Assembly (NCBI RefSeq): GCF_023016525.1 | Contig: NZ_JALKCG010000010.1 | Span: 1-64,000 of the forward strand | Origin: Ancylobacter koreensis | GTDB taxonomy: Bacteria; Pseudomonadota; Alphaproteobacteria; Rhizobiales; Xanthobacteraceae | Direction: 5' to 3' | Length of the DNA: 64,000 nucleotides | Part shown: positions 49,377 to 64,000 of the stretch, one piece after another | Numbering within the stretch: position 1 is the first letter of the stretch | Layout of the letters: every line of letters begins with the position of its first letter | Position numbers and translations under genes: made by a program | Notes under the pieces: generated by a model | Databases searched by the model: none | Told to the model about the DNA's origin: nothing | What the model saw: only the letters and a program-made list of their open reading frames with translations

Positions 49377-49390
49377 GGGGGGACCCATCT

Positions 49391-51571: not shown

Positions 51572-51648
51572 CGGCTCGCCGCCAGCCGCGCCGCCGCCGC
51601 GAGGCGGCGGCGCTCTCCTTCCATTCCATACTTGCCGAGGATGAACGC

Positions 51649-52653
51649 ATGCGGATGCCGGATGGACGCTGGGATCCCTTCGACGACTATGTCATCGACT
51701 TCGCGCTGGAGCGCATGCGCGCCGGCCAGCGCGTCGCCCTCGTCACGCTGGCCGCCATTGAGGGCTCCTCGCCGCGCCCGCTCGGCGCGCAGATGGCCGT
51801 GACCGAGGCCGGAGAATGGGTGGGCTATCTCTCGGGCGGCTGTGTCGAGCGCGCGGTGGTGGAGGAGGCCATCGCAGCGATCCGCGCCGGCGAGAACCGG
51901 CGCGTGCGCTACGGGCGCGGCTCGAAATACATGGACATCCGCCTGCCCTGCGGCAGCGCCATCGAGCTCGATTTCGACGTGACGCTGGGCGAGCGCGCGC
52001 TGGAGGCCATCGACCATCGCGTGCGTAACCGGCACACGGCCTTCCTCGAAACCGACGGCGCGCCGTCGCTCGCCTGTGAGACCGGCGAGCCGCGCGCCTA
52101 TCCGCCACGCCTGCGTCTCGTCGTTCTCGGTGTCGGCCCGGCGGCGGTCTGCCTCGCCCGGCTCGCCCGCGCCGCCGGGCTCGACACGCTGCTCGGCTCG
52201 CCCGATGCCGCCACCCGCGCTGCGGCGGAAGGCGTCGCCCTTCTCCCACTCGGCATGTCGGCACCGGCAAACGGCATTCCGGCGGATGCGCGCACCGCCA
52301 TCGCCTTCATGTTCCATGACCATGAATGGGAGCGCCTTCTGCTGCCCGCCGCGCTGGAAACGCCCGCCTTCTATATCGGCGCGCTGGGTAGCCGCCGCAC
52401 GCAGGCGAACCGGCTGCGCCTGCTGCGCGAGGCCGGCACGAACGAGGCGCAGATCGCCCGCCTGCGCGGTCCCGCCGGCCTGTTCCACGGCGCCCGCAGC
52501 GCGCAGGCCATCGCCGTTTCCATCCTCGCCGAGATCATGGAGGCCGATATCCGCCGGGCCATGCCGGAGGACCAGGAGACGGCACCGGACATCGCGTTCG
52601 AACCCGCCTGCGTTCAGGCGAGCCGCATCACCAGCGCCGCCAGCTCCGCCTGA
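51649..52653 (+). CDS. XdhC/CoxI-family molybdenum cofactor maturation protein
   Basis: XdhC binds molybdenum cofactor and helps insert its sulfurated form into hydroxylases. The 334-residue protein has the N-terminal XdhC_CoxI domain (VALVTLAAIEGSSPRPLGAQMAVTEAGEWVGYLSGGCVE) and the C-terminal XdhC_C Rossmann domain (LRLVVLGVGPAAVCLARLARAAG, AFYIGALGSRRTQANRLRLL). It follows the IorB-like gene by 77 bp. Its 3' end overlaps the convergent LuxR-type gene by 40 bp. Confidence 0.92.
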   Translation: MRMPDGRWDPFDDYVIDFALERMRAGQRVALVTLAAIEGSSPRPLGAQMAVTEAGEWVGYLSGGCVERAVVEEAIAAIRAGENRRVRYGRGSKYMDIRLPCGSAIELDFDVTLGERALEAIDHRVRNRHTAFLETDGAPSLACETGEPRAYPPRLRLVVLGVGPAAVCLARLARAAGLDTLLGSPDAATRAAAEGVALLPLGMSAPANGIPADARTAIAFMFHDHEWERLLLPAALETPAFYIGALGSRRTQANRLRLLREAGTNEAQIARLRGPAGLFHGARSAQAIAVSILAEIMEADIRRAMPEDQETAPDIAFEPACVQASRITSAASSA

Positions 52654-53720
52654 CGGCGCGTGCCGGTCTTGGCGAAGGCCGATTGCAGGTATTTGCGGGC
52701 GGTGTCCGCGCGGTAGCCGAGCCTTCGCGCCGCCTCGGCGGGGGTTTCGCCGCCGACGATGGCCAGCACCAGTCGCGCCTCCGCGAGGGTCAGCGCAAAG
52801 CTGGCCTGCAGCAGCGCCTCGGCCGGCAGGCGGATGGCCTGCGGGTCCTCGAACAGGATGAGCGCGCCGCTGGCGCTGAAGATTTCCTCGCCGCCGCCCC
52901 GCAGCGGTATGGCAGAGGCGAACAGCGGCAGGCGTCCGGTGCCCCGGCTCAGCGCGATGCGCGCTGGCTCGTCGCGCATCAGCGGCAAGGTGCCGCCGGC
53001 TACGGCCCGGACGAGCGCCTGGAATCGGTCGTCGCTCGCCCTGTCGGTCGCCGCCAGCCGGCCTTCGCGAATCTGGACACCCGCTCCGACGAGCGCCTCG
53101 AAGCGCGCATTGAAGCGGACGAGCCGTCCCTTCGGGCTGACCAGCGCCGCCGCCCGGCCCATGGCCTCCAGCATGTCAAGGCCGCCGAGGTCGCGCTCGC
53201 CTTCCAGCGCCACGGAAATCTCGATGGCGCGCCGCAGATGCGCCAGCACGCCGTCGAGCACCGTGACCTCGGCGCGCGTGAAGGGCTCGTCGACGAGCCG
53301 CCGTTCGCAGGTGATGGCGATGGTGCTGCCATTGGGGCCGGCCGCGACCGCTCCGGCGAACCACATGAACCGCGTCGGTATCAGCAGTTCCTGATACATC
53401 GGCAGGCGGTCCAGTTCCTCCCGCGTGAACACGTCGGCCTCGGTGATGAAACCCTTGGGTTTCAGAGGCAGGATGCGGTTCGCCCGGTCGTTGCGCTCGA
53501 ACCACCTGTCGCGGGCGAAAGGTTCGATATGTACGTCCAACCCCTCCGAGATCAGGCTGGCGTTTCCGTTGTTGCCGAAGCGCAGCAGGCCGACACCCTC
53601 GCTGCCGGTCGCCTCCGCCATCGCCTTCAGCGCGGAGCGCCAGCGATCCGGCAGCAGGACGGCCTCGTAGATCGCGTCGATCGACTTCGCCAATGCTTCG
53701 GAGTTGAGCTGCCGAGCCAT
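52614..53720 (-). CDS. LuxR-family transcriptional regulator
   Basis: The 368-residue protein ends in a LuxR HTH (FALTLAEARLVLAIVGGETPAEAARRLGYRADTARKYLQSAFAKTG, shown here in two contiguous halves) and has an N-terminal region of about 300 residues without a clear named domain, perhaps PAS or GAF-like. It converges on the xdhC-like gene with a 40-bp tail overlap, so it may regulate the Mo-hydroxylase genes, or the genes to its right. The signal is unknown. Confidence 0.85.
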   Translation of the reverse strand: MARQLNSEALAKSIDAIYEAVLLPDRWRSALKAMAEATGSEGVGLLRFGNNGNASLISEGLDVHIEPFARDRWFERNDRANRILPLKPKGFITEADVFTREELDRLPMYQELLIPTRFMWFAGAVAAGPNGSTIAITCERRLVDEPFTRAEVTVLDGVLAHLRRAIEISVALEGERDLGGLDMLEAMGRAAALVSPKGRLVRFNARFEALVGAGVQIREGRLAATDRASDDRFQALVRAVAGGTLPLMRDEPARIALSRGTGRLPLFASAIPLRGGGEEIFSASGALILFEDPQAIRLPAEALLQASFALTLAEARLVLAIVGGETPAEAARRLGYRADTARKYLQSAFAKTGTRRQAELAALVMRLA

Positions 53721-53884
53721 GCCAACGCCTCCTCAACCAACGGAAGAGTTGCAGACGAACTTCGCGCGCTCAAGCGAAAACGCCGGGATGGACGCGAGCC
53801 GGCCGAAGCGATCCGCGCGCCGGTTGGCTTCGCCGGGACGATGGCTTATCGGTTCCCTCCCTTTCCCGTTCAGGACGCCTCCCG

Positions 53885-54178
53885 ATGCAGTTCGTTCTCA
53901 CCGCCCATGACCGCCCCGGCGCGCTTGCCCTGCGACTGGAGACCCGCCCGGCACATCTCGACTATCTGCGCGCCATCGCCGGCAGCCTCGTCTTCGCCGG
54001 CCCGATGCTGGACGAGGACGGCAAGCCCTGCGGCTCGGTGATGGTCTATGAAGCGGAAGACCGCGCGGCGGCGGAAGCGCTCGTCGCGCAGGACCCCTAC
54101 AGCAAGGCCGGCCTGTTCGCGCAGACCGAGCTGAAGGGCTACCGCGTCGTCGTGAAGGATGGCGTCGTCGGAGCCTGA
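53885..54178 (+). CDS. YciI-family protein
   Basis: The 97-residue protein is a short ferredoxin-like alpha+beta protein: MQFVLTAHDRPGALALRLETRPAHLDYLRAIAGS, GPMLDEDGKPCGSVMVYEAEDRAAAEALVAQDPYSKAGLF. The conserved His in RPAHLDYL and Asp in AQDPY match the YciI family, some of which have dehydratase or dechlorinating roles in catabolic pathways. Specific function is unknown. It lies next to the convergent Fe-ADH gene. Confidence 0.9.
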   Translation: MQFVLTAHDRPGALALRLETRPAHLDYLRAIAGSLVFAGPMLDEDGKPCGSVMVYEAEDRAAAEALVAQDPYSKAGLFAQTELKGYRVVVKDGVVGA

Positions 54179-54196
54179 GGTCCTACCGCCGGGGCG

Positions 54197-55357
54197 CTAC
54201 GGCGCTCCGGCGGGCTGTTCCACGCGCGAGACGCGCTCAAGCAGTGAATGGAGATCGTCGGCCGTCAGGGCGCGCGGGTTGGTCGCGCTGCTGTGGTCGG
54301 CGAGCGCGCGCTCGACAATCCAGTCATGGCTGTCGCGCCTCACGCCGAGCGAGGTCAGGTCGGCCGGGATGCCGAGCCGGCGGTTCAGCGCGTCCAGTTC
54401 GCCGGCAAGATCGGCCGCCGGGTCGAGCCCCAGCGCGCGGTTCAGCCTCTCCGCCTTGTCGCCGACATGGGGCAGGTTGAAGCGCAGCACCTCGGGCATC
54501 AGCAGCGCGTTGAGCGTGCCATGATGCAGGTTCGGCTCGCCGAGCCCGCCCAGCGCATGGGACAGCGAATGCACGGCGCCAAGCCCCTTCTGGAAGCTGA
54601 GCCCGCCCTGCAACGAACCCATCATTAGCTCGCGCCGCGCCTGTGCGTCGCCTCCGTCCTGGAAGGCGCGCTCGATATGGCGCCAGATACGCCCGGCACC
54701 GTCGAGGGCGATGGCCTCGGCGGGCGGGTTGTAGCGCGGTGACAGGAAGGTTTCGACGCAATGCGACAGCGCGTCGAGAGCGGTCGCGGCGGTGAGGAAG
54801 GGCGGCAGCCCATAGGTCAGTTCGGGATCGCACACCGCCTTGCGCGGAATGAGATGCGGGCTGATGAAGCCGAGCTTGCGTCCATCGGCCAGCGTCAGCA
54901 GCGCCGCGCGCCCGACCTCGGCGCCGGTTCCCGCCGTCGTCGGCACAGCGATGACAGGAGCCACGGCCGGCGTGATGCGCGCCAGCCCGCCATAGATGAC
55001 GGCGTAGCGCTCCAGCGGGCCCTCATGGGTGGCGAGCAGGGCGACGCCCTTGGCGAGATCAATCGGCGATCCCCCGCCCAGCGCCACGATGCCGTCGGCG
55101 CCGCTGTCGCGATAGGCGGCGAGGGCAGCTAGAACGGCCGCCTCGGTCGGATTCGACGGAACATCGAGGACGACCGACGTCCCCGGCGGGCAGAGCGCGG
55201 CGATGCGCTCCACCAGCCCCGTCGCGGCAAGCCCGCGGTCGGAGACGATGAGCGGGCGGCGGATGCCGGCCGCCGCGAGGTGCTCGCCCAGGCGAGCGCT
55301 GGCGCCCTCCCCGAACTCGATGGTCGTGAGATAAGCGATGGTGGCCTGCACGGGCAT
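54197..55357 (-). CDS. Iron-containing alcohol dehydrogenase (group III)
   Basis: The 386-residue protein shows the NAD-binding [41 protein letters not shown], and metal-ligand motifs [17 protein letters not shown] and [35 protein letters not shown]. Family members include 1,3-propanediol, 4-hydroxybutyrate and lactaldehyde dehydrogenases and maleylacetate reductases. By context it would handle a short-chain alcohol or aldehyde intermediate. It is co-directional with, and 55 bp downstream of, the HMG-CoA-lyase-like gene. Confidence 0.92.
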
Positions 55358-55411
55358 TCCTCCTGAGAATGCGCCCGGACGCGAAAGGCGTCGCCGGCCC
55401 GGGCGGACGCC

Positions 55412-56332
55412 TCACGCCGCCTGCCGGTAGGTGCGCGGAATGCCGGCCTTGTTCACATTGCCGAGCAGCGCCGCCCCCGGCAAGCCGCGCTTGAGCACCT
55501 CCCGCGCGCGGAAAAGCCCGTCGAGGTCGATACCGGTCTCGAAGCCCATGCTCTCCAGCATGAAGACGAGATCCTCGGTCACGATGTTGCCGGAGGCGCC
55601 GGGCGCGAAGGGGCAGCCGCCGAGACCGGCGAGCGCCGAATCGAAGCAGCGTATGCCTTCCTCCAATCCCGCCAGCGCATTGGCAAGGCCGAGGCCCATC
55701 GTGTCGTGCAGGTGCAACCGGTTCAGCACCGGGCCGATCTCCTGATGCACGGCGCGGATGACGGCGCGCACCTGTGCGGGATTGCCGTAACCCACGGTGT
55801 CGGCCAGCACCACGCCGTCCACCCCCGCCTGCGCGAGCGCGGCGGCAACCATCACCACGCGCTCCTGCGGCACGGCGCCCTCGATGGAGCAGCCGAAGGC
55901 GGTGGCGCAGCCGGCATCGACCTTCATCGGCCGCTCCTGCGCCTTCACCCACTCGACGATGGCGCGGACCTCTTCGACCTGCTGCAGGCTGCCCTTGTTG
56001 GTGTTGGCGCGGCTGTGCCCCTCGCTGACCGAAACCGGGATGATGACGACGTCGGCGCCGCTCTCATGGGCGCGCTGCGCGCCCTTCAGGTTCGGCGCCA
56101 GCGTGACGATGGTCAGCCCGGCAATGTCGCGGCTGGCGCGCACCACCTCGCCGGTGTCGGCCATCTGCGGAATGAGCTTGGGCGGCACGAAGCTGCCGAC
56201 CTCGATCTCGTGCAGCCCGGCGGCGACGAGGGAGCGGATCCACTCGATCTTGACCTCGGTCGGCATGATCGCCTCGGCCATCTGCAGCCCGTCGCGCGGG
56301 CCGACCTCGCACACCCTGACCTTCTCGCCCAT
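55412..56332 (-). CDS. HMG-CoA lyase-like enzyme (HMGL/pyruvate-carboxyltransferase family)
   Basis: The 306-residue TIM-barrel protein begins VRVCEVGPRDGLQM, the HMG-CoA lyase signature, and has GSFVPPKLIPQMADT, ISVSEGHSRAN-type loop, HLHDTMGLGLANALAGLEEG (metal His pair) and GLGGCPFAPGASGNIVTEDLVFMLESMG with the catalytic Cys. It should cleave a 3-hydroxy-3-methylacyl-CoA or related hydroxyacyl compound. The ATG at 56332 has GGGAGGA upstream. A LacI-type operator lies 29 bp before the start. Confidence 0.92.
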   Translation of the reverse strand: MGEKVRVCEVGPRDGLQMAEAIMPTEVKIEWIRSLVAAGLHEIEVGSFVPPKLIPQMADTGEVVRASRDIAGLTIVTLAPNLKGAQRAHESGADVVIIPVSVSEGHSRANTNKGSLQQVEEVRAIVEWVKAQERPMKVDAGCATAFGCSIEGAVPQERVVMVAAALAQAGVDGVVLADTVGYGNPAQVRAVIRAVHQEIGPVLNRLHLHDTMGLGLANALAGLEEGIRCFDSALAGLGGCPFAPGASGNIVTEDLVFMLESMGFETGIDLDGLFRAREVLKRGLPGAALLGNVNKAGIPRTYRQAA

Positions 56333-56360
56333 GATCGCATCCTCCCGTGCCGATCTATAT

Positions 56361-56375
56361 TTGAAACGTTTTCCC
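56361..56375. promoter_or_regulatory. LacI-type operator upstream of the HMG-CoA-lyase-like gene
   Basis: TTGAAACGTTTTCCC contains GAAACGTTTTC (56363-56373), a dyad around the central CG typical of LacI-family operators. The same 11-mer occurs as its reverse complement at 58734-58744, and a relative at 63621-63632. It lies in the divergent spacer between this operon and LacI regulator 1. Confidence 0.65.
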
Positions 56376-56588
56376 ATGCGAACCTAGGACGTCCGGCAGA
56401 GGCCGGTCAAGGGCGCGCGCGCCGGCCGCACCTTCCGCGAGAGGATTGCCGGTGCAGCCGCTTGCGGACATCGGGGATGGGCGTGGATGACGTCGCGGCT
56501 GCGATGCGAACAGCGTCGCGCGGCGGGCGCAGATCGGCTAAGCATGGAACGTTCTCGCGCAGCGGGACGCATTGCGAGTGTCTGACGT

Positions 56589-57632
56589 ATGGATGAAACC
56601 AAACCCGCGAAGGTGACCCCGGCCCGCGCAACGATCAGCGATGTCGCGCGCCATGCGGGTGTCTCGATCGGCACCGTCTCGCGCGTGCTCAACAAGGCGC
56701 GCAACGTGAAGCCGGCCTTGCAGCGCCGCGTGCTCGACGCCGCCGCCGCGCTCGACTACCGGCCGGACAGCTTCGCGCAGGGCATGCGCTCGAAGAAGAC
56801 CCACGTCATCGGCGTCATCGTGCCCGATTTGCGCAACCCCCTCTCCTCGGAGGCCGCCGCCGGCGTCGAGGAGGAGCTCACCCAGCAGGGCTATTCCTTC
56901 TTCCTCGCCAATTCGCGCTATGAGCGCGGCCGCGAGGAGAACATCCTCAATGAGTTCGCGCGCCGTCGCGTCGACGGCATCATCGCCATCCTCGCCCACG
57001 ATCAGGACCCCCGCACGGTCGAGCAGCTGCGCCGCCTGCCCATGCCGGTGGTGCTGCTGGAACGCGAGATCGGCGCCGAATTCGACGCCGTGCGCACCGA
57101 CCAGGTGCAGGGCACCTACCGCGCCACCCGCTATCTCGCGGCGCTCGGCCACCGGCGCATCGCGCTCATCACGGTGCCGACCGACAACATGTCCGGCCGC
57201 TACCGCCTGCAGGGTTATACCGAGGCGCTGGCCGATGTCGGCGTTGCGGCAAACCCCGACCTGATCCACATGGCCGGCTACACCCGCGATTACGCGGTGA
57301 ACGCCGCCTATTCCGTGCTCTCCATGCGCAACAAGCCCACCGCACTCATCGTCTCCGGCGGCATGCTGCCGGGCGTGCTCGACGCCATGCGCCAGCTCAA
57401 TCTCTCGATTCCCGACGAGCTGTCGCTGGTCGTGCTCGGCGACACCGAGCTCGCCGCCCTCACCCGCCCGGGCATCACCGCCATACGCTACGACTGGGCG
57501 CAGACCGGACGCGTCGCCGCGCGCCTGACCATCTCGCGCATCGGCGGCAGCGAGACGCCGCCGGAGCGCGTGATCGTTCCCTACGAGTTCATCCTGCGCG
57601 AATCCTGCCAGGAGCTCGTCGGCGCCGTTTAG
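56589..57632 (+). CDS. LacI-family transcriptional regulator 1
   Basis: The 347-residue protein has the LacI HTH and hinge (ATISDVARHAGVSIGTVSRVLNKARNVKPALQRRVLDAAAALDYRPDSFAQGMRSKKTH, divided here by the linker) and a periplasmic-binding-like ligand domain (VIGVIVPDLRNPLSSEAAAGVEEEL). It is a paralogue of the regulator at 62520; long stretches align without gaps, including ITAIRYDW and LGDTELAAL. It is divergent from the HMG-CoA-lyase-like gene and its tail overlaps the Gfo/Idh gene by 4 bp. Confidence 0.94.
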   Translation: MDETKPAKVTPARATISDVARHAGVSIGTVSRVLNKARNVKPALQRRVLDAAAALDYRPDSFAQGMRSKKTHVIGVIVPDLRNPLSSEAAAGVEEELTQQGYSFFLANSRYERGREENILNEFARRRVDGIIAILAHDQDPRTVEQLRRLPMPVVLLEREIGAEFDAVRTDQVQGTYRATRYLAALGHRRIALITVPTDNMSGRYRLQGYTEALADVGVAANPDLIHMAGYTRDYAVNAAYSVLSMRNKPTALIVSGGMLPGVLDAMRQLNLSIPDELSLVVLGDTELAALTRPGITAIRYDWAQTGRVAARLTISRIGGSETPPERVIVPYEFILRESCQELVGAV

Positions 57633-58636
57633 CCGGCCGCCGGCATCGGATTCGCCGGCAGCAGCGGCGTGGCGGCGGCCTTGGCATAGGCCTCGTCCAT
57701 CAGCCGCAGGATCGGCACCATGTCGGAGAGGTCGGCGAGTGGCGGCTTGCCCGTGTGCACCCGCTCCAGCACGTCGTGCACGAAGGTGCGGTAGTGCGGC
57801 ACATTGGTGGTGAAGTAAGGCCACTGGCGGGACGTGCCGTCATTGGCAAGGCTTTCCACCGTCTGCGTGTCATGCGCGATGGTGTAGCTGCGCGGCGAGC
57901 GCAGCGCGTAGTGCATGTCGAAATTGCTGGTCGGCGCGGGGTAGAGATAGCCGGTCTCGACCACGCACAGCGCGCCCGCCCGCTCGAAAGTGATGACCGA
58001 ATAGTCCTCCACCCGCTCGCGCCAGGCATGGTTGGCCATGGTGGCGTTCAGCACGCGCACATCCGGGCCGAGCAGGCGCAGCGCGAGGTCGAAGAAATGG
58101 ACGGCGAGGTTGATGGTGCAGCCCCCGCCGGAGAGTGAGGGATCGAGCATCCAGCCGCAGCCGGCCTGCCGGTAGCGGGCGGGGAAGCCGGCGATGAAAC
58201 GGAACGTCGCGTAGCTGAGGTCGCCCTCTTCCTTCAGCGATTCGAGGTGGCGGGCGAAATCACCGTTGCGGAAGACCAGCGGCACCGCCGCGAAGGCGCC
58301 CGCGCGAGCCGCCAGCTCGGCAATCGGCGCCACATCGGCTGTCGACAGGCCGCAAGGCTTCTCCAGCGCGAAGGGAATGCCTTCCTCGATCAGGAAGCGC
58401 GCCTCCTCCGGCATGTCGGCGTGACGGCCGAGGGCGAAGACGAAGTCGGGACGCAGCCGTCGGCAAAGGGCGCGGTAATCGGTATCGCCCGCGCAGCCGA
58501 AGCGGCGCGTCAGCCGCTCCACCGCTTGCGGATCGGGATCGGCGACGCCGACCAGCTCGGCGCCTGCGACCTCCAGCAGCGGGAGGACATAGAGATCGAG
58601 GTGCCAGTGCGAGGCCCCGATAAAAACGATTTTCAT
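57629..58636 (-). CDS. Gfo/Idh/MocA-family oxidoreductase
   Basis: The 335-residue protein has an N-terminal Rossmann fold (MKIVFIGASHWHLDLYVLPLLEVAGAELVGVADPD) and the family EKP motif in PFALEKPCGLSTADVAPI, with a C-terminal alpha/beta domain containing GGGCTINLAVHFFDLALRLLG. The GASHWH variation in place of GxGxxG is unusual. Family members oxidise sugars, inositols or related polyols with NAD(P). The ATG at 58636 is used. A shared LacI-type operator lies about 100 bp upstream, toward the hydratase genes. Confidence 0.9.
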   Translation of the reverse strand: MKIVFIGASHWHLDLYVLPLLEVAGAELVGVADPDPQAVERLTRRFGCAGDTDYRALCRRLRPDFVFALGRHADMPEEARFLIEEGIPFALEKPCGLSTADVAPIAELAARAGAFAAVPLVFRNGDFARHLESLKEEGDLSYATFRFIAGFPARYRQAGCGWMLDPSLSGGGCTINLAVHFFDLALRLLGPDVRVLNATMANHAWRERVEDYSVITFERAGALCVVETGYLYPAPTSNFDMHYALRSPRSYTIAHDTQTVESLANDGTSRQWPYFTTNVPHYRTFVHDVLERVHTGKPPLADLSDMVPILRLMDEAYAKAAATPLLPANPMPAAG

Positions 58637-58731
58637 ACTGTTTCCCACAAAAGGCACTGTTTCCAACCCTGGGCGCCACAAGTCAACGTATCAGCGCCGT
58701 TCGACGTGCAGTCTGCCATGAGCTTCGCATA

Positions 58732-58747
58732 TTGAAAACGTTTCATA
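58732..58747. promoter_or_regulatory. LacI-type operator between Gfo/Idh and hydratase genes
   Basis: TTGAAAACGTTTCATA contains GAAAACGTTTC (58734-58744), the exact reverse complement of the operator core at 56363-56373. It lies in the divergent region between the oxidoreductase (minus) and the hydratase pair (plus), placing both under the same kind of regulator. Confidence 0.65.
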
Positions 58748-58842
58748 TGCAGCTACAGTGACCGCCAAGACAGGCGCGGCCGCAAAGGACGCACCTCCCG
58801 CCTGCGGGCGGCAGAAGAAGACGGCAAGGCGAGGAGACATGC

Positions 58843-59385
58843 ATGGCTTTTGATGAATTGGTGAACCACATCACCCCCGAGGTGCGCGCCGTCATCGGTG
58901 CTCGCTCGGACTGGCAGGAGGCGCCCCATCCGGTGGAGGCCAGCGAGGTGCGGCGCTTCTTCCAGGCGCTGATGGACCCCAACCCGCGCTACTGGGACGA
59001 TGAACACGCCGCCGGCACACGCTACGGCGCACTCGTCGCACCGCCCGGCTTCCCGGTCCATGCCTTCCGCCGGCCGGCGGACGAGTTGAACGATTCCCTC
59101 GCCGCAGCGGGCGATCCCGATTTCGACGGCCTCTCGCGCGCCATGCGGCCGGGACTGCCGAAGCTGCCGATCCCGCTCTCGGGCATCCTCAATGGCGGCT
59201 ACGAATACGAGTTCTACAGCTACCCCAAGGTCGGCGAGCGCATCCAGTGCCGCTCGGCCTATCTCGACATCTACCAGAAGCAGGGCAAGGCCGGGCCGAT
59301 GGTGATGGTCGTCATCGAGGACGAGTACCGCGCCGCCGATGGCCGGCCGCTGCTGAAGTCCCTGAACACCATGATCATGAGATAG
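58843..59385 (+). CDS. Two-subunit enoyl-CoA hydratase, FAS1-like dehydratase subunit
   Basis: The 180-residue hot-dog-fold protein shows FFQALMDPNPRYWDDEHAAGTRYGALVAPPGFPVHAF, the FAS1-like dehydratase pattern. It keeps the Asp of the hydratase motif (D45) but has Tyr where the catalytic His normally stands (Y50). It is followed 3 bp later by a MaoC-type subunit, so the active enzyme is likely a heteromer like other two-gene MaoC hydratases. The substrate is presumably an unsaturated acyl-CoA. Confidence 0.85.
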   Translation: MAFDELVNHITPEVRAVIGARSDWQEAPHPVEASEVRRFFQALMDPNPRYWDDEHAAGTRYGALVAPPGFPVHAFRRPADELNDSLAAAGDPDFDGLSRAMRPGLPKLPIPLSGILNGGYEYEFYSYPKVGERIQCRSAYLDIYQKQGKAGPMVMVVIEDEYRAADGRPLLKSLNTMIMR

Positions 59386-59388
59386 ACG

Positions 59389-59868
59389 ATGGCCGAGACC
59401 GTGTATTTCGAGAACGTCGCGATCGGCGACGACATTCCTGTGCTCACCAAGGGCCCGATGACGACGGCCCATATCGTCCGCTGGTCGGCCGCGATGGAGA
59501 ACTGGCACAAGATCCACTACGACTGGCGCTACGCCACCGAGCATGACGGCCTGCCGGACGTGCTGATCAACGGCTCGTGGAAGCAGCATGTTCTGGCGCA
59601 GGTGCTGTCCGACTGGGCCGGCGAGACCGGCTGGCTGTGGAAGATGAACTTCCAGTATCGCGGCATGAACATTCCCGGCGATACGCTGTTCGCCTGGGGC
59701 CGCATCACGGGCAAGAACCAGCGCGGGAACTACGGCGTCATCGAGCTGGAGATCGGACTCAAGGACCAGAACGGCAAGGAAGGCTCGCCCGGTACGGCGA
59801 CCGTGGTCCTTCCGCTGCGCGGGGGGCCAGCGGTGCCCTACCCGTTCGATCCCGCCGCGCTGAACTGA
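59389..59868 (+). CDS. Two-subunit enoyl-CoA hydratase, MaoC-like subunit
   Basis: The 159-residue protein has the MaoC-like segment AAMENWHKIHYDWRYATEHDGLPDVLINGSWKQHVLAQVL. The catalytic His is present (H43, in KIHYD), but the position of the partner Asp is Asn (N38). Together with the preceding subunit, which has the Asp but not the His, a split or rearranged active site is suggested. The pair is translationally close (3 bp apart) and under the operator at 58732. Confidence 0.85.
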   Translation: MAETVYFENVAIGDDIPVLTKGPMTTAHIVRWSAAMENWHKIHYDWRYATEHDGLPDVLINGSWKQHVLAQVLSDWAGETGWLWKMNFQYRGMNIPGDTLFAWGRITGKNQRGNYGVIELEIGLKDQNGKEGSPGTATVVLPLRGGPAVPYPFDPAALN

Positions 59869-60034
59869 CGGCCTGCGCTCTCCGTCTTCGCGCCCCGCGC
59901 AGGGACGGAGAGCGCCATCGACATCGCGCACAAAAGCGGCCGGGTCACGCCCGGCCGTTCCCGTTCGATGGGCACGACGCCATGTCCCACATCGTCCCGA
60001 CCGCTCACGAAGCGACCGGGGCGACTGCCGGAAG

Positions 60035-60619
60035 TCAGTACAAGGCGTAGTTGTTTGCCATGTCGAGATAGGGCGCCGCCTCGCCGAAGGCATCGACATT
60101 CAGCGCCATTTCCTCCGGCCCGCGCAATCCCGCCAGCACGATGAAATCGACAGCCCCGTCGCGGGAATAGGCGAAGACACGGAGCTGCACCGTATTTGAT
60201 TTGCCGGCAAAGTTCGACGTCGCACCGGCGATGACCGTGTCCGCCAGAGCCGCCGGCGTGCCGCTGAAGCGCAGCAGCGTGCTGCGCACGGTCGGCACCG
60301 TGACCTCGTCGCCGGGATAGATCTGTGCGCCGGCGGAGCGATAAACTTTCACCCGGCTGGTCACCCGCCGCGTCCAGGGGCTGGCCCGGTCGGCCGAGAC
60401 GCGCAGATAGGATTCGGTCTCCAGCACCGCCTCGTTCACCATGTCGTACATGGCGAGGTATTTCGGATAACCGTCGAGGCAGACATAGCGGCGCCCGCTT
60501 TCGAAGCCCTCCACCGCCACGCGCTCGGGCACATGCTCGGTGTCGTACCAGGCGTTGAATTCGTCCTCGAAGGCCGGCGGCGGCTGCATCAGGACGAGGA
60601 GGAAGCCTTTATTGCTCAT
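60035..60619 (-). CDS. Dimeric alpha/beta-barrel-like protein of unknown function
   Basis: The 194-residue product begins KGFLLVLMQPPPAFEDEFNAWYDTEHVPERVAVEGFESGRRYVCLDG, the EthD/DUF4286-like pattern of short dimeric alpha/beta-barrel proteins, then has YLAMYDMVNEAVLETESYLRVSADRASPWTRRV. The NAWYDTEHVPER stretch with its His is typical of such catabolic accessory proteins. No catalytic activity can be assigned. The ATG at 60619 is preferred over the GTG at 60625. It is downstream of two hydrolase genes in the same direction. Confidence 0.75.
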   Translation of the reverse strand: MSNKGFLLVLMQPPPAFEDEFNAWYDTEHVPERVAVEGFESGRRYVCLDGYPKYLAMYDMVNEAVLETESYLRVSADRASPWTRRVTSRVKVYRSAGAQIYPGDEVTVPTVRSTLLRFSGTPAALADTVIAGATSNFAGKSNTVQLRVFAYSRDGAVDFIVLAGLRGPEEMALNVDAFGEAAPYLDMANNYALY

Positions 60620-60634
60620 GGTCACACTCCGGAC

Positions 60635-61411
60635 TCAGGCGGGGCCGGCCTCGCGGCCGGCGAAATCGAGAACGAGCTCGGCGAAGCGCGCGGGCTGCTG
60701 GTAGGGCACGAAATGCGCCGCGCCTTCCATAACCGCGAGCTGCGCATGCTGCACGAGCGCCTTCACCGCTTCCGCGCGCTCCATCGGCAGCAGGACATCG
60801 TGGCGGCCCGGCACAAGAAGGGTCGGGCACGTCACGCGCGTGAAGGCCCGCGTCGCATCGGCCTGCGACGCCGCCAGCAGCGCCCAGGCATAGGAGGCCG
60901 GGTCCTGCGCGGCGAAACGATTCATGTAGCGCACATAGCGCTCGTCCTGCGGCTGTCCGAGGAAGGCACGCTCGACCGCGCTGGGCAGCACCGCCGCCAT
61001 GCCGCCCGCGCGCACGGCGTCGGCGCGGTCCGCCAGCATCTGGCGAGCGGCGGGCGCACTGGCTGGGGTGGGATTGGCCAGAACGAGGCCGGCCACGGCC
61101 TCCGGACGGGTGGCGGCATAGACGCCGGCCGTCATCGTGCCGACCGCGCAGGCGACGATCACCACATTCCCGATTCGGAGGTCGCGCCGCACTTCATCGA
61201 GCGCGGACGCCTGCGCCTCAAGAGACACCGGCGCTGCGGGGCCGGGACTGCCGCCGGCGCCGGGCAGGTCGACGGCCAGCGTCGTCGCCCGCCCGTCGAC
61301 GGCACGCACGAAATCGTCCCAGAAGGTGAGATCCGCGCCGAGCGGATGGATCAGCAGTAGCGCGGGATCGCGCCGGTCGCCGGTGAGCACATGGGAAAGC
61401 GGCTGCGCCAT
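60635..61411 (-). CDS. Alpha/beta-fold hydrolase homologue lacking the nucleophile Ser
   Basis: The 258-residue protein has the fold of 3-oxoadipate enol-lactonase and related enzymes: PALLLIHPLGADLTFW at the oxyanion strand, a late Asp in LLVPGRHDVLLP and a His in MEGAAHFVPYQQP. At the nucleophile elbow, however, it reads VACAVGTM, so the usual Ser position (A89) is Ala. The neighbouring paralogue at 61418 keeps GLSFGG. It may be catalytically inactive, a partner of the paralogue, or use another mechanism. It starts 7 bp after that gene. Confidence 0.82.
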   Translation of the reverse strand: MAQPLSHVLTGDRRDPALLLIHPLGADLTFWDDFVRAVDGRATTLAVDLPGAGGSPGPAAPVSLEAQASALDEVRRDLRIGNVVIVACAVGTMTAGVYAATRPEAVAGLVLANPTPASAPAARQMLADRADAVRAGGMAAVLPSAVERAFLGQPQDERYVRYMNRFAAQDPASYAWALLAASQADATRAFTRVTCPTLLVPGRHDVLLPMERAEAVKALVQHAQLAVMEGAAHFVPYQQPARFAELVLDFAGREAGPA

Positions 61412-61417
61412 GATCGC

Positions 61418-62197
61418 CTAGCCCACGCCGAGCGGGCGGCCCGCCAGGAAATCGCCGACGGTTTCGGTAAACAGGCCGCTGCTCTCCAGCTGCATCATAT
61501 GCGGCGCGCCTGGAAGCGTCGCGACACGGGCGCCGGGTATCGCCGCCGCCAACGCGGCAGAAGCCGCCGGCGAGGTCGCCGCGTCGTGTTCGCCGGCGAC
61601 GACCAGCGTCGGCACATTGATAGCGCCGAGGCGCGCCAACGCGTCGAAACCGCTGATCGCCTGCCAACCTTCCGACCAGGCGCGCACGCTGTTGCCGCGC
61701 AGCCGCGCGCGAACGCGCTCGACCACAGGATTGCCGACGAAGCCGGGAGTAAACCAGCGCTCGATCGTCAGCGGCACGATGGATTCCATCCCGTCCCGCT
61801 CGGCGGCGAGGCCGCGCTCGCGCAGAGCGTCCCGCGCCTGTTCGGGAATGCCGCCGGGACAGCCGCACAGGATGAGGCGCGATACGCTGTCGGGATGATC
61901 GAGCGCAAGCGTCTGAGCGACCATGCCGCCGAAGGAGAGCCCCAGCACCGCCGGCCGGGCGAAGCCGTGCCGCCGGATCGCCCGGTGCACATCGGCCGCA
62001 TAGGCCTCGATAGACGCCGCCCGCGGACCGAGCGGAGAACTGCCGAAGCCGCGCAGGTCGAGCCGCAGTACCCGGTGCGAATGGGCGAGGATCGCCGGCA
62101 TCGGGCCCCAGAAGCTGTTGTCGAGACCGATGGGGTGAAGCAGAACCAGCTCCTCGCCGGAGCCTTCGACGATGCCGTGCAGATCGACCAGTTCCAT
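61418..62197 (-). CDS. Alpha/beta-fold hydrolase, 3-oxoadipate enol-lactonase-like
   Basis: The 259-residue protein has VLLHPIGLDNSFWGPM at the oxyanion loop, nucleophile elbow VLGLSFGGMVAQ (S88), Asp in LVVAGEHDAATSP and His in LPGAPHMMQLE, a complete triad. It resembles PcaD-type enol-lactonases and other C-O or C-C bond hydrolases. It is first in a three-gene minus-strand group with the Ala variant and the alpha/beta-barrel protein. The 320-bp region upstream is shared with LacI regulator 2. Confidence 0.9.
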   Translation of the reverse strand: MELVDLHGIVEGSGEELVLLHPIGLDNSFWGPMPAILAHSHRVLRLDLRGFGSSPLGPRAASIEAYAADVHRAIRRHGFARPAVLGLSFGGMVAQTLALDHPDSVSRLILCGCPGGIPEQARDALRERGLAAERDGMESIVPLTIERWFTPGFVGNPVVERVRARLRGNSVRAWSEGWQAISGFDALARLGAINVPTLVVAGEHDAATSPAASAALAAAIPGARVATLPGAPHMMQLESSGLFTETVGDFLAGRPLGVG

Positions 62198-62255
62198 GAC
62201 GGGCGTACTCTTCAGGATGGTGTCGCGGCCAAAGTGAGCGCGCAGCGGCGTCCCA

Positions 62256-62271
62256 ACAAATGTCGACTTGT
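62256..62271. promoter_or_regulatory. GTCGAC-centred dyad 1 in the hydrolase/LacI-2 intergenic region
   Basis: ACAAATGTCGACTTGT is a dyad with ACAA and TTGT arms and GTCGAC at its centre (62262-62267). A second dyad with the same centre lies at 62327-62347, its centre 73 bp away, close to seven helical turns. This differs from the CGTTTC operators of the cluster, so another regulator may bind here. It is within the gene-free stretch 62198-62519, which shows no other feature. Confidence 0.4.
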
Positions 62272-62326
62272 CGCCTCGTCGAAGCGCTACGGCGATTTAA
62301 TTCCGGCGCCACCGATCAAGTCAACA

Positions 62327-62347
62327 CAAATAGTGTCGACAGATTTG
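62327..62347. promoter_or_regulatory. GTCGAC-centred dyad 2 in the hydrolase/LacI-2 intergenic region
   Basis: CAAAT and ATTTG arms (62327-62331 and 62343-62347) flank AGTGTCGACAG. It shares the GTCGAC centre and the outer A/T-rich arms with the dyad at 62256-62271. It lies between the divergent hydrolase and LacI-2 genes. Confidence 0.4.
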
Positions 62348-62519
62348 GAGTCTCACCTCAAGGCTGTCAAGCGGACCACCGGATCCGCGCGCGTCGCCCG
62401 GAGACGCCGGCACCTTTTGCCGACCCGGCTTGCTGCGCCCGCTCTGGCCAGCCTAGAGTACGCCTCGCGGGACGTCATGCGCCGCAAGGTTGCCGCGCCG
62501 TCCAGCCCCGAATCACGAC

Positions 62520-63569
62520 GTGAAAAACAAGTCCGCCACCCCCGCGACGATCACCATCAAGCATGTCGCCCAGCATGCGGGGGTTTCGCTCGGCACCGTC
62601 TCGCGCGTGCTGAACCGCGCCGGAAATGTCGATGCGGCGCTGCGCCGGCGCGTCGAGGAGGCGATCCTCGATCTCGGCTATGAGCCCAACCCCGTCGCCC
62701 AGAGCCTGCGTTCGCGCCAGAGCCGCGTCATCGGCGTGCTCATGCCGGACATACAGAACCCGCTCACCGCCGCCGCCGTGACGGGCCTCGAACCGGTGCT
62801 GGCGCGGGCCGGCTACACGCTGTTCCTCGCCAACTCGCATTCCGACCGCGAGCGCGAGAGCGACGTGCTGGAGCAGTTCAAGCGGAGGCGCGTCGACGGC
62901 GTCATCGTCATGGTGGCGAACGACAATGACGAGGCGACCCGCGCCCAGCTGCGCGATTTCTCCGTGCCGCTCGTCATGATGGAACGCGTCATCGACCTCG
63001 ACGTCGACTGCGTGCTGACCAACCAGTATGACGGCACCTACCGCGCCACCCGCTACCTGCTGGGACTCGGCCATCGCCGCATCAGCCTCATCACCGTGCC
63101 GGCGATCACCCATTCGGGGCGCGAGCGGCTGCGCGGATTCGAGGCCGCCTTCGGCGATCTCGGCGTCGAGGTGCCGCGCGATCTGATCCATTCCGAGGGC
63201 CGCCAGCATCCCTATGGGCGCGACGCCGCCTATTCCTCGCTGATCGGCCGCGAGCCGGCAACCGCGATCGTCGCCAGCGGCGGGCATCTGGCCGGCGTCA
63301 TCGAGGCGGTGCGCCTGCTCAATCTCAGCGTGCCCCAGCATCTGTCACTGGTCACGCTCGGCGACACCGAGCTGGCCGCACTCATCGAGCCGCCGATCAC
63401 TGCCATCCGCTACGACTGGCCGGCGACGGGACGCTGCGCAGCGGAACTGCTGCTGGACCAGCTTTCCGGCGGCCATGGCGCCACACGCCAGCGCATCATC
63501 GTGACCCACGAATTCATCATCCGCGGCTCCTGCGCGCCGCCGAAGGCGAGCGCCCCGCGCACCGTCTAG
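62520..63569 (+). CDS. LacI-family transcriptional regulator 2
   Basis: The 349-residue protein is a LacI-type repressor or activator with the HTH/hinge (ITIKHVAQHAGVSLGTVSRVLNRAGNVDAALRRRVEEAILDLGYEP, then NPVAQSLRSRQSR) and a ligand-binding domain (VIGVLMPDIQNPLTAAAVTGLEPVLARAG). It is a close paralogue of the regulator at 56589. I selected the GTG at 62520, which matches the length of the paralogue; a TTG at 62490 is also in frame. It is divergent from the hydrolase genes. A LacI-type operator follows downstream at 63621. Confidence 0.93.
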   Translation: MKNKSATPATITIKHVAQHAGVSLGTVSRVLNRAGNVDAALRRRVEEAILDLGYEPNPVAQSLRSRQSRVIGVLMPDIQNPLTAAAVTGLEPVLARAGYTLFLANSHSDRERESDVLEQFKRRRVDGVIVMVANDNDEATRAQLRDFSVPLVMMERVIDLDVDCVLTNQYDGTYRATRYLLGLGHRRISLITVPAITHSGRERLRGFEAAFGDLGVEVPRDLIHSEGRQHPYGRDAAYSSLIGREPATAIVASGGHLAGVIEAVRLLNLSVPQHLSLVTLGDTELAALIEPPITAIRYDWPATGRCAAELLLDQLSGGHGATRQRIIVTHEFIIRGSCAPPKASAPRTV

Positions 63570-63620
63570 CCTCGCCCATCCGCGCACGCCGCCTGCCGAC
63601 GGCATCTCGCATTTCAGTGA

Positions 63621-63632
63621 TGAACCGTTTCA
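63621..63632. promoter_or_regulatory. LacI-type operator downstream of LacI-2
   Basis: TGAACCGTTTCA is a near-perfect dyad around CG and resembles the GAAAACGTTTC operators at 56363 and 58734. It lies downstream of LacI-2 and upstream of the right window edge, so it probably controls a gene that starts near or beyond the edge. Confidence 0.5.
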
Positions 63633-63715
63633 TTTCTTTCTTGCCACATCGTTTCGCGCAGCATATCGTCTTCCCAATTCGACCTGCACAGACAGGTTCA
63701 GGACGTCGCCGGCGG

Positions 63716-63832
63716 TCATCGGCTCCAGCCGATTCCGAACAGTGCGACGCCGCTCAGGAGGAAAACATGCCCCAGCCTGGAGAGCCGCGCTGCCGCGCGG
63801 TCGTGCGCGCGCTCATTGTCGGACAGTTTCAC
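63716..63832 (-). CDS. Possible small membrane protein, 38 residues or longer
   Basis: A minus-strand frame ends at 63716 with SDNERAHDRAAARLSRLGHVFLLSGVALFGIGWSR, a charged helix followed by one short hydrophobic segment, with GC-rich third positions. The GTG at 63832 is the nearest start; the frame continues open to 63979 with less protein-like, Arg/Gly-rich sequence. No domain is recognised. An ATG with AGGAGG exists on the opposite strand at 63767, so only one of the two is likely real. Confidence 0.35.
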   Translation of the reverse strand: MKLSDNERAHDRAAARLSRLGHVFLLSGVALFGIGWSR

Positions 63833-64000
63833 CCGGCGTTCCGCCACCCGCCCCGTTCGCGGGCGGCCGACGCTTGGGCCGGCGGCGCCATCCCGGTCGC
63901 GCCGCGCCCCGGACGCCCGCCCGCTTCCCGCGCGGACGCCTTTCGCCATGGCGCTTCCCGCCCGGCCGCTTCCCACCACGTCCCCTTCCGCCGCTTCCCT

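What the first reader, a model, noticed from the sequence alone, without database searches (positions are those of the whole stretch)
53885..63640. Uncharacterised catabolic cluster run by two LacI paralogues sharing one operator type
Seen: two LacI-family paralogues (56589-57632 and 62520-63569) lie about 6 kb apart. With them are an Fe-alcohol dehydrogenase, an HMG-CoA-lyase-like enzyme, a Gfo/Idh oxidoreductase, a two-subunit hydratase, a dimeric-barrel protein and two alpha/beta hydrolases. The core GAAACGTTTTC (56363) recurs as its exact reverse complement at 58734, and TGAACCGTTTCA lies at 63621. Known: LacI-family proteins bind such CG-centred dyads. Inference: a pathway passing through an unsaturated acyl-CoA, a hydroxyacyl lyase step and a lactone or ester hydrolysis. 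I cannot match the gene set to a named pathway.
Basis: partly seen in the sequence, partly recalled or inferred. Interest (0 to 1): 0.7.

Follow-up and report, generated by a model that had tools for sequence, protein, structure and literature searches.

The report
LacI-controlled CoA-ester degradation cluster
A group of bacterial genes that probably imports an organic acid, attaches it to coenzyme A, adds water and splits it, and that seems to be switched by two sister repressor proteins through conserved DNA sites; the parts are of known kinds, but the combination and its food molecule have not been worked out.

Summary
The window is from Ancylobacter. The block HMGL–LacI1–Gfo/Idh–MaoA–MaoB–barrel–two hydrolases–LacI2 continues past the window into ABC importer–CaiB1–CaiB2–SBP, in the same order in all 6 of 30 genus genomes that hold MaoA. 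LacI1 and LacI2 are sister clades, 53% identical. Six-genome footprinting finds five CG-centred dyads near the promoters with cores invariant in 6 of 6. Four have AACGTT or CCGTTT cores. The fifth, ATAGTGTCGACAGA, differs; it occurs exactly in 6 of 6 cluster genomes and 0 of 24 others. So 'one operator type' is only partly supported. The missing first enzyme is a CoA-transferase pair resembling benzylsuccinate CoA-transferase, giving activation, hydration and HMG-CoA-lyase-type cleavage of a probably branched dicarboxylate. The same five-enzyme core occurs in Caballeronia and Paraburkholderia without matches to these LacI genes. Substrate, effector, and which LacI binds which site are unproven. 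New variant of a known kind.

The parts
53885..54178 (+). YciI-family protein (peripheral; seen only in this genome among the six stretches held)
   Evidence: Pfam PF03795 6.4e-21; not found in the other five stretches at E<=1e-20
54197..55357 (-). Fe-containing alcohol dehydrogenase, 4-hydroxybutyrate-dehydrogenase-like; found in 4 of 6 cluster stretches
   Evidence: NF058672 564.5 bits, cut-off 500
55412..56332 (-). HMG-CoA-lyase-like retro-Claisen lyase (ATG at 56332 preferred over 56377, because site 1 lies at 56360-56374)
   Evidence: NF004283 291.8 bits; invariant R13-D14, E44, H207/H209, C240, N249 in 8 of 8 homologues aligned
56360..56374 (.). site 1: TTTGAAACGTTTTCC at the HMGL promoter
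   Evidence: AAACGTTTTCC invariant in 6 of 6; outer bases differ in G931 and G922; position
56382..56410 (-). putative HMGL promoter: -35 TTGACC (GGTCAA on +, 56405-56410), -10 region at 56382-56388
   Evidence: GGTCAA invariant in 6 of 6; hexamers assigned by eye
56539..56553 (.). site 4: TAAGCATGGAACGTT upstream of LacI1 (possible autoregulation; no promoter assigned)
   Evidence: invariant in 6 of 6; the following bases, which complete GAACGTTC here, differ in G922
56589..57632 (+). LacI1, LacI-family regulator
   Evidence: PF00356 and PF13377; sister clade of LacI2
57629..58636 (-). Gfo/Idh/MocA oxidoreductase
   Evidence: PF22725, PF02894, PF01408; only weak PDB relatives, best 5.7e-6
58732..58745 (.). 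site 2: TTGAAAACGTTTCA, overlapping the putative -35 of maoA
   Evidence: invariant 14 of 14 in 6 of 6; exact TGAAAACGTTTCA once in each of 6 cluster genomes, in 2 of 24 others
58754..58759 (+). putative maoA -10 TACAGT
   Evidence: fixed 28-base distance in 6 of 6; TACAGT itself in 4 of 6
58843..59385 (+). MaoA, MaoC/FAS1-dehydratase-region subunit
   Evidence: PF13452 1.4e-23
59389..59868 (+). MaoB, probable catalytic hot-dog hydratase subunit (ENWHxIH)
   Evidence: motif invariant in 14 of 14; 34% over 77 aa to an itaconyl-CoA-hydratase-type protein; hot-dog model, mean pLDDT 73.6
60035..60619 (-). possible tandem ferredoxin-like (dimeric alpha/beta barrel) protein, function unknown
   Evidence: no Pfam or NCBIfam family at 1e-3; model pLDDT 53, so the fold is only suggested
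60635..61411 (-). alpha/beta hydrolase 1, PcaD-like
   Evidence: TIGR02427 133 bits, cut-off 256
61418..62197 (-). alpha/beta hydrolase 2, PcaD-like
   Evidence: TIGR02427 171 bits, cut-off 256; nearest PDB sequence 3-oxoadipate enol-lactonase 2xua 1.1e-32
62330..62343 (.). site 5: ATAGTGTCGACAGA, near the expected -10/start of the hydrolase operon; different core from sites 1-4
   Evidence: invariant in 6 of 6; exact once in each of 6 cluster genomes, 0 of 24 others
62365..62371 (-). putative -35 TTGACA of the ABH2-ABH1-barrel operon (TGTCAAG on +)
   Evidence: invariant in 6 of 6; block of 41-42 bases with site 5
62520..63569 (+). LacI2, LacI-family regulator
   Evidence: 53% to LacI1 over 344 aa
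63618..63636 (.). site 3: TGATGAACCGTTTCATTTC, 4 bases upstream of the putative -35 of the importer operon
   Evidence: invariant 19 of 19 in 6 of 6
63641..63669 (+). putative promoter of importer/CoA-transferase operon: TTGCCA - 17 - TATCGT
   Evidence: fixed 52-base block in 6 of 6, -35 hexamer differs in G931
63767..64000 (+). small ORF with conserved ribosome site and start (MxQPGxP...), out of frame with the ABC ATPase; runs past the window end

Best explanation
This is a local regulon of two sister LacI-family regulators controlling a CoA-dependent carboxylate pathway. An importer of the PhnSTU2/AfuA type takes up an anionic compound. Two PcaD-type hydrolases, a Gfo/Idh enzyme and often an Fe-ADH prepare it (lactone or ester opening, redox; inferred). 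A BbsE/BbsF-like two-part class III CoA-transferase makes the CoA ester. The split MaoA/MaoB hydratase adds water. The HMG-CoA-lyase-family enzyme cleaves the 3-hydroxyacyl-CoA into acetyl-CoA (or a homologue) and an oxo-acid. Without inducer the LacI proteins sit on CG-centred dyads at the promoters of the cluster. At hmgL, maoAB and the hydrolase operon the dyad overlaps or follows the putative promoter (repressor position). At lacI1 a dyad lies between the HMGL promoter and the start codon (possible autoregulation). At the importer operon the dyad lies just upstream of -35, so activation or looping is possible there. Shown: gene order, orthology, paralogy, footprints. Inferred: binding, direction of control, enzyme substrates. 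The most likely substrate class is a branched C5-C6 dicarboxylate (itaconate, mesaconate, 3-methylglutaconate or a substituted form).
For: Same gene order in 6 of 6 MaoA-holding genus genomes of 30 searched. Five footprints with runs of 11-19 bases invariant in 6 of 6; no column shuffle of 5000 reached those lengths. Sites 2 and 5 track the cluster: 6 of 6 cluster genomes against 2 of 24 and 0 of 24 others. LacI1 and LacI2 are sister clades (100/100) among the rows sampled, with matching species order, and 9 of 10 recognition-helix residues are identical. CaiB1 and CaiB2 each have a different benzylsuccinate CoA-transferase subunit as best PDB match (9fn0_A 5e-17, 9fn0_B 3e-45), and are fused in one 806-aa ORF in L101. 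MaoA, MaoB, CaiB1, CaiB2 and HMGL recur together in 4 of 4 Caballeronia/Paraburkholderia loci (L020-L023), which have no match to LacI1 or LacI2 at 1e-8. The importer travels with CaiB and Mao in another genus (L101). Of 14 loci of related LacI genes, 7 carry CoA-ester enzymes within the stretch held, one with an itaconyl-CoA-hydratase-type protein (8khg, 8e-51) and a CitE-type lyase beside LacI.
Against: No expression, binding or enzyme data. Site 5 has a different core, so one regulator type may not explain all sites. The importer permease passes the NCBIfam model for a putative 2-aminoethylphosphonate permease (717 bits, cut-off 593), and the SBP's nearest PDB relatives are 4r72 (AfuA, recalled), 8x1a and a pyridoxal-phosphate-binding protein; none points to a dicarboxylate. 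Gfo/Idh enzymes (recalled) and LacI proteins usually go with sugars (for LacI: PMC4052901 passages). MaoB's similarity to itaconyl-CoA hydratase is short and MaoA showed no match to the related protein of L148. CaiB1's best PDB match is only just ahead of another CaiB protein (4ed9, 1.5e-16). HMGL is only a family assignment. L101 has no HMGL in the 20 kb held. No background control was made for the 7 of 14 LacI neighbourhoods; CaiB genes are common. MaoA was found in only 1 of 385 class-wide genomes, the own one, so the core is rare.
Confidence: 0.6

Rival explanations
1. The paralogues have divided the operators: LacI1 binds the AACGTT/CCGTTT sites (1-4), LacI2 binds TGTCGACA (site 5) beside its own gene, so the hydrolase operon answers to a different signal.
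For: Site 5 core differs from the rest and its 14-base form is private to the cluster (6 of 6 against 0 of 24). It lies between ABH2 and LacI2. LacI-TFs mostly have even palindromes with a CG centre, as site 5 has (PMC4052901 passages).
Against: The recognition helices differ at one residue of ten (I/L), which predicts like operators; site 3, on LacI2's other side, is of the TGAA..CG type.
Confidence: 0.3
2. Same regulation, but the pathway degrades 3-hydroxy-3-methylglutarate or 3-methylglutaconate (free or as plant HMG esters opened by the hydrolases) to acetyl-CoA and acetoacetate, not a C5 acid.
For: The lyase is of the HMG-CoA lyase family with its catalytic residues (residue roles recalled); CaiB2 also matches succinate-hydroxymethylglutarate CoA-transferase (9br6, 4.8e-35). 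The other three PF00682 matches of this genome lie in longer open frames (566, 438 and 1178 aa) and were not identified further.
Against: No thiolase or acetoacetate gene was recognised in the cluster genes read; the hydratase subunit's nearest named PDB match is itaconyl-CoA hydratase, though short.
Confidence: 0.3
3. A sugar-type LacI regulon (Gfo/Idh, hydrolases, AfuA-like sugar-phosphate importer) that merely neighbours the CoA enzymes.
For: LacI proteins mostly serve sugars; the SBP is nearest to 4r72 (AfuA recalled).
Against: Sites 1-3 stand at the promoters of the CoA-enzyme operons themselves; importer and CoA-transferases are in one run of genes here and near each other in L101; related LacI genes neighbour CoA-ester genes in 7 of 14 loci (no background control).
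Confidence: 0.07
4. The conserved dyads belong to an unrelated global regulator or are promoter elements only.
For: Sites 1, 2 and 5 overlap or adjoin promoter elements, which are conserved anyway.
Against: Exact sites 2 and 5 are absent from 22 and 24 of 24 congeners without the cluster, and site 3 lies outside its putative promoter; a global regulator would be expected to leave sites elsewhere.
Confidence: 0.08

Closest known systems
Bacterial itaconate degradation (Ict-Ich-Ccl / RipABC)
   Same: CoA-transfer, MaoC-type hydration and C-C cleavage in one cluster; MaoB resembles itaconyl-CoA hydratase 8khg over a short stretch. The ict-ich-ccl operon is named in the abstract of PMC12599236 (search listing).
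   Different: Two-part BbsEF-like transferase, hydratase split in two genes, and an HMG-CoA-lyase-family lyase in place of a CitE-family citramalyl-CoA lyase (family recalled); LacI in place of the LysR-type control that I recall for it.
Benzylsuccinate CoA-transferase BbsE/BbsF
   Same: Each CaiB protein matches a different Bbs subunit best in the PDB.
   Different: CaiB1's match is weak; no acyl-CoA dehydrogenase was recognised among the cluster genes, and a lyase follows the hydratase.
HMG-CoA lyase (leucine degradation)
   Same: Family and catalytic residues.
   Different: Sits with a CoA-transferase pair and split hydratase, with no leucine-degradation gene recognised in the cluster.
AraQ/MalR1 pair of Bifidobacterium (PMC6882875, passages)
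   Same: Two LacI proteins with near-identical operators and largely overlapping regulons.
   Different: There on central carbon metabolism; here local, neighbouring paralogues in a CoA-ester cluster.
Putative 2-aminoethylphosphonate importer PhnSTU2
   Same: Permease over the TIGR03262 cut-off.
   Different: SBP below the phnS2 cut-off (365 of 393); no phosphonate-degrading enzyme recognised among the genes read.

Membership tests
LacI-family transcription factors | N-terminal LacI HTH and periplasmic-binding-like effector domain | tested here: met
   PF00356 and PF13377 for LacI1; PF00356 hits for both; LacI2 aligned over its length with LacI1
LacI-family transcription factors | CG-centred palindromic dyads at promoters of neighbouring operons (binding apart) | tested here: met
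   five conserved CG-centred dyads; binding itself not tested
LacI-family transcription factors | sugar effector (usual, not defining) | tested here: inconclusive
   at the place of the usual Asn and Asp of the sugar site (positions recalled, matched by eye) both paralogues have Ser/Gly and Gly; several relatives differ too
Itaconate degradation pathway | itaconate CoA-transferase | tested here: inconclusive
   class III CoA-transferase pair, best NCBIfam models succinate-glutarate and mesaconate or formyl-CoA transferases, all below cut-off
Itaconate degradation pathway | itaconyl-CoA hydratase | tested here: inconclusive
   MaoB to 8khg 2.9e-5 over 36 residues; split in two genes; MaoA no match to the L148 homologue
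Itaconate degradation pathway | CitE-family citramalyl-CoA lyase (RipC/Ccl) in the cluster | tested here: not met
   no such match among the cluster genes scanned; the lyase is PF00682; the rest of the genome was not searched for CitE
HMG-CoA lyase | PF00682 with conserved catalytic residues | tested here: met
   (residue roles recalled)
HMG-CoA lyase | cleavage of HMG-CoA | not testable with these tools
   needs enzyme assay
Benzylsuccinate CoA-transferase | two different class III subunits acting together | tested here: inconclusive
   two adjacent subunits, fused in L101; the class III Asp (recalled) is aligned in CaiB2 of 3 of 3 genomes compared, and in CaiB1 here and in L101 but not in L020; PDB matches
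PhnSTU2 2-aminoethylphosphonate importer | permease and SBP over NCBIfam cut-offs | tested here: not met
   permease yes, SBP no

The most novel reading that the evidence does not exclude
An undescribed dicarboxylate pathway in which an HMG-CoA-lyase-family enzyme, not a CitE-family one, cleaves citramalyl-CoA or a substituted analogue made by a two-part CoA-transferase and a two-part hydratase. It is controlled by a duplicated LacI pair that senses an organic acid or its CoA ester instead of a sugar, the two copies having begun to split their operators inside one cluster.
Probability: 0.2. Interest if true: 0.65.

Novelty: new variant of a known kind. Interest (0 to 1): 0.45.

Why it matters
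It gives a testable, compact case of repressor duplication: two sister LacI proteins, five conserved sites, one local regulon, six species. It also points to a five-enzyme core (two-part CoA-transferase, split hydratase, HMG-CoA-lyase-type lyase) in some Alpha- and Betaproteobacteria whose substrate I could not assign. Such lyases are annotated as hydroxymethylglutaryl-CoA lyase (for example); here that name may mislead.

Tried and rejected
Loose-motif scan: at 3 mismatches TGAAAMCGTTTCA is not enriched in the window, so the operator case was not built on it. The two other genome matches with 1 mismatch were read: C11:521396 lies inside the coding frame called at L011:5398-7032; C13:89826 lies in the first codons of the frame called at L012:4316-5839, by sequence a citrate synthase, whose real start may be further in. 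Neither was counted as a regulon member, and the second was not followed up. Literature: no paper in the held library holds four of the five terms CoA-transferase, MaoC, hydroxymethylglutaryl-CoA lyase, itaconate, LacI; one paper on another subject holds the five terms; the 10 of 56 listed papers (Ancylobacter, LacI, CoA-transferase, two of three) showed nothing on this cluster in title or abstract start. Other searches: 37, 40, 41, 42, 80. An unlisted description is not excluded. Structure: the model of the barrel protein was too poor (pLDDT 53) to search with. The MaoB model has pLDDT under 50 in residues 35-62, which hold the catalytic motif, and its matches have TM-scores of about 0.5-0.6 with rmsd mostly near 10-11, so it supports the hot-dog fold only. 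Rfam found nothing at gathering score in 53000-64000. Plasmid records of two LacI relatives had no gene table. A vitamin-B6 or phosphonate pathway was considered because of the importer and set aside because no other gene of either was recognised among those read; the genome was not searched for them.

Rows dropped before counts: the 14 LacI-relative loci were chosen from the 17 match rows and the 24, not all of them. The 80 HMGL loci are the best of 290 stretches; 8 of 80 have MaoA in the DNA held, and many of the 80 are short contigs. In one search the pattern used to pick LacI rows caught 9 of 18 loci tried (9 of 16 relatives, neither of the two other own-genome LacI loci), besides the 12 cluster rows; so the sister relation is shown only against those 9, several on long branches that the tool warned of.

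Full report
What is there. Pfam and NCBIfam confirm a YciI protein, an Fe-ADH (over the cut-off for 4-hydroxybutyrate dehydrogenase), an HMG-CoA-lyase-like enzyme, a LacI-family protein (LacI1), a Gfo/Idh oxidoreductase, a MaoC-type N-terminal dehydratase protein, and two PcaD-like hydrolases; MaoB and the barrel protein match no Pfam family at 1e-3. The genome has 4 matches to the LacI DNA-binding family, two of them LacI1 and LacI2. The window is C1:1-64000 of a 91,018-base contig.

The cluster is longer than the window. Reading on, LacI2 is followed by an ABC ATPase (frame C1:63816-65195; the start is probably at about 64023), a double permease (65192-66904), CaiB1 (66961-68190), CaiB2 (68187-69359) and a solute-binding protein (69434-70468), then a 2-keto-4-pentenoate-hydratase-like gene. 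The permease passes TIGR03262 PhnU2 (717 bits, cut-off 593), while the SBP falls below phnS2 (365, cut-off 393). The nearest solved SBPs are 4r72 and close behind it 8x1a and 6wce (pyridoxal-5-phosphate binding protein); that 4r72 is AfuA, a sugar-phosphate binder, is recalled. CaiB2 is best matched by chain B (3e-45) and CaiB1 by chain A (5e-17, just ahead of 4ed9) of benzylsuccinate CoA-transferase 9fn0.

Conservation. Of 149 family genomes 6 hold MaoA at E<=1e-20, three of these at only 43% identity; of 385 class-wide genomes only the own one does. In the genus, 6 of 30 genomes hold it at E<=1e-40. In 6 of 6 the order HMGL-LacI1-Gfo/Idh-MaoA-MaoB-barrel-ABH1-ABH2-LacI2-ABC-CaiB1-CaiB2-SBP is the same. 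Fe-ADH is in 4 of 6, the keto-hydratase in 3 of 6, and YciI only here, among the stretches held and at E<=1e-20.

Operators. In six-way alignments the longest invariant runs are AAACGTTTTCC (11; HMGL promoter), TTGAAAACGTTTCA (14; maoA), TGATGAACCGTTTCATTTC (19; importer), TAAGCATGGAACGTT (15; lacI1) and ATAGTGTCGACAGA (14; between ABH2 and LacI2). No column shuffle of 5000 reached any of these lengths. This control keeps column make-up but not the clustering of conserved columns in real promoters, so it overstates significance; promoter elements also appear (GGTCAA, TGTCAAG, TATCGT), and so does the ribosome site CAGGAGGAA. The intergenic MaoB-barrel region, as a contrast, has no invariant run over 3. 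Genus-wide, exact TGAAAACGTTTCA is found in 6 of 6 cluster genomes, always about 100-120 bases before maoA, and in 2 of 24 others. Exact ATAGTGTCGACAGA is found in 6 of 6 and 0 of 24; at one mismatch three others and a second place in G922 match. The HMGL-site form GGAAAACGTTTCA was found once in each of the 4 cluster genomes searched and in none of 5 congeners; in G931 and G922 the outer bases differ. In this genome all five dyads have CG at the centre of an even palindrome of 8 bases, or 6 of 7 pairs at site 3; sites 1 and 2 can also be read as odd palindromes. At site 4 the eighth base is changed in G922. Ravcheev and others report even, CG-centred palindromes for most LacI proteins, and autoregulation for 72% (PMC4052901, passages).

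Layout. The maoA site overlaps the putative -35, with a TACAGT-like -10 at a fixed distance; the importer site lies 4 bases upstream of TTGCCA-17-TATCGT; the HMGL site lies just past the putative -10, and the hydrolase site lies where the -10 or start would fall after TTGACA (hexamers chosen by eye, no promoter assigned for lacI1). This suits repression at HMGL, maoA and the hydrolases, and leaves activation or looping open at the importer.

The two regulators. LacI1 and LacI2 share 53% of 344 positions: 57% in the DNA-binding part, 53% in the effector domain, 9 of 10 in the recognition helix. In a 21-row tree they form sister clades (100/100), each with G931 outermost, then G922 and G921 (one of these forks only 85/71), as expected from one duplication before these species split; only 9 outside rows were in the tree. 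Other matches in family and order are 34-42% identical. Of 14 such loci read, 7 (L147, L148, L149, L152, L153, L155, L156) carry CoA-transferase, CitE, HMGL or itaconyl-CoA-hydratase-type genes in the stretch held. In L148 the LacI gene adjoins a 275-aa protein matching itaconyl-CoA hydratase 8khg at 8e-51 and a CitE-type lyase. The other 7 of 14 do not show this, and no background rate was measured. At the place of the usual sugar-binding Asn and Asp of LacI proteins both paralogues have other residues (roles and positions recalled, matched by eye).

The pathway. MaoA, MaoB, CaiB1, CaiB2 and HMGL stand together in 4 of 4 Caballeronia/Paraburkholderia loci (L020-L023), with no match to LacI1 or LacI2 at 1e-8; L022 has a different LacI-looking frame 8 kb away. 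L017 has all but MaoB. L101 has MaoA, MaoB, the importer and a fused CaiB1-CaiB2 ORF, but no HMGL in the 20 kb held. Looser versions with HMGL, MaoA and MaoB occur in L104, L105, L168 and Diaphorobacter L176, with other activating enzymes in some. HMGL keeps R-D, E, H-x-H, C and N in 8 of 8 aligned homologues. MaoB has an invariant ENWHxIH motif in 14 of 14 and a hot-dog model of middling quality whose matches include two-part hydratases such as ChsH1-ChsH2 and HadAB. MaoB, but not MaoA, matched the L148 hydratase. The order activate, hydrate, cleave is inferred from these families. In Mycobacterium one enzyme, Rv2498c (CitE family, recalled), cleaves both citramalyl-CoA and HMG-CoA and is unlike HMG-CoA lyases in sequence (PMC6689899, passages), so the converse use of an HMG-CoA-lyase-type enzyme on citramalyl-CoA is possible but unshown.

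Verdict. A conserved, cluster-specific set of sites and two LacI paralogues over a CoA-ester pathway, most likely one local regulon. The parts are of known kinds; the combination was not found in the searches. PMC5592240 (passages) describes mesaconate CoA-transferase and a MaoC-type mesaconyl-CoA hydratase, the nearest chemistry seen for the first two steps.

Noticed in passing
63757-64000 (continues to C1:64033): A strong ribosome site (CAGGAGGAA) and an ATG three bases on, conserved in 6 of 6 genomes, start a small ORF (MxQPGxP...), out of frame with the ABC ATPase; in this genome it ends over the likely ATPase start. Its length varies (49-88 aa). Possible leader peptide or coupled translation.
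   Followed up: partly
L168:4332-15558 (genome G931): A second, different MaoA-MaoB-HMGL cluster in one congener, with what look by sequence like a SucC/SucD-type ligase pair, an enolase-superfamily protein, a D-2-hydroxyacid dehydrogenase and a tripartite tricarboxylate transporter in place of CaiB and ABC.
   Followed up: partly
L148:7977-10773: A LacI relative (41%) directly beside an itaconyl-CoA-hydratase-type gene and a CitE-type lyase gene, suggesting related LacI proteins that serve CoA-ester pathways.
   Followed up: partly
L101:7402-9822: CaiB1 and CaiB2 fused in one 806-aa ORF, evidence that the two act together.
   Followed up: yes
L012:5826-5838 (C13:89826): A one-mismatch operator-like site TGAAATCGTTTCG in the first codons of the called frame of a citrate-synthase-like gene; if the real start is further in, it would be upstream.
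   Followed up: no
57629-58636, start codon region near 58636: The first codons of the Gfo/Idh gene read TGAAAATCGTTTT, operator-like, but this is coding sequence (MKIVF) and may be coincidence.
   Followed up: no
L020:10956-12407 and L022:10976-12412: A protein that by sequence looks like a citrate-synthase-like domain with an N-terminal DNA-binding-like segment, beside the core genes; found in 4 of 4 of L020-L023.
   Followed up: no
49205-53720: Upstream neighbours read by eye as a molybdenum hydroxylase large subunit, an XdhC-like protein and a LuxR-type regulator; not searched.
   Followed up: no
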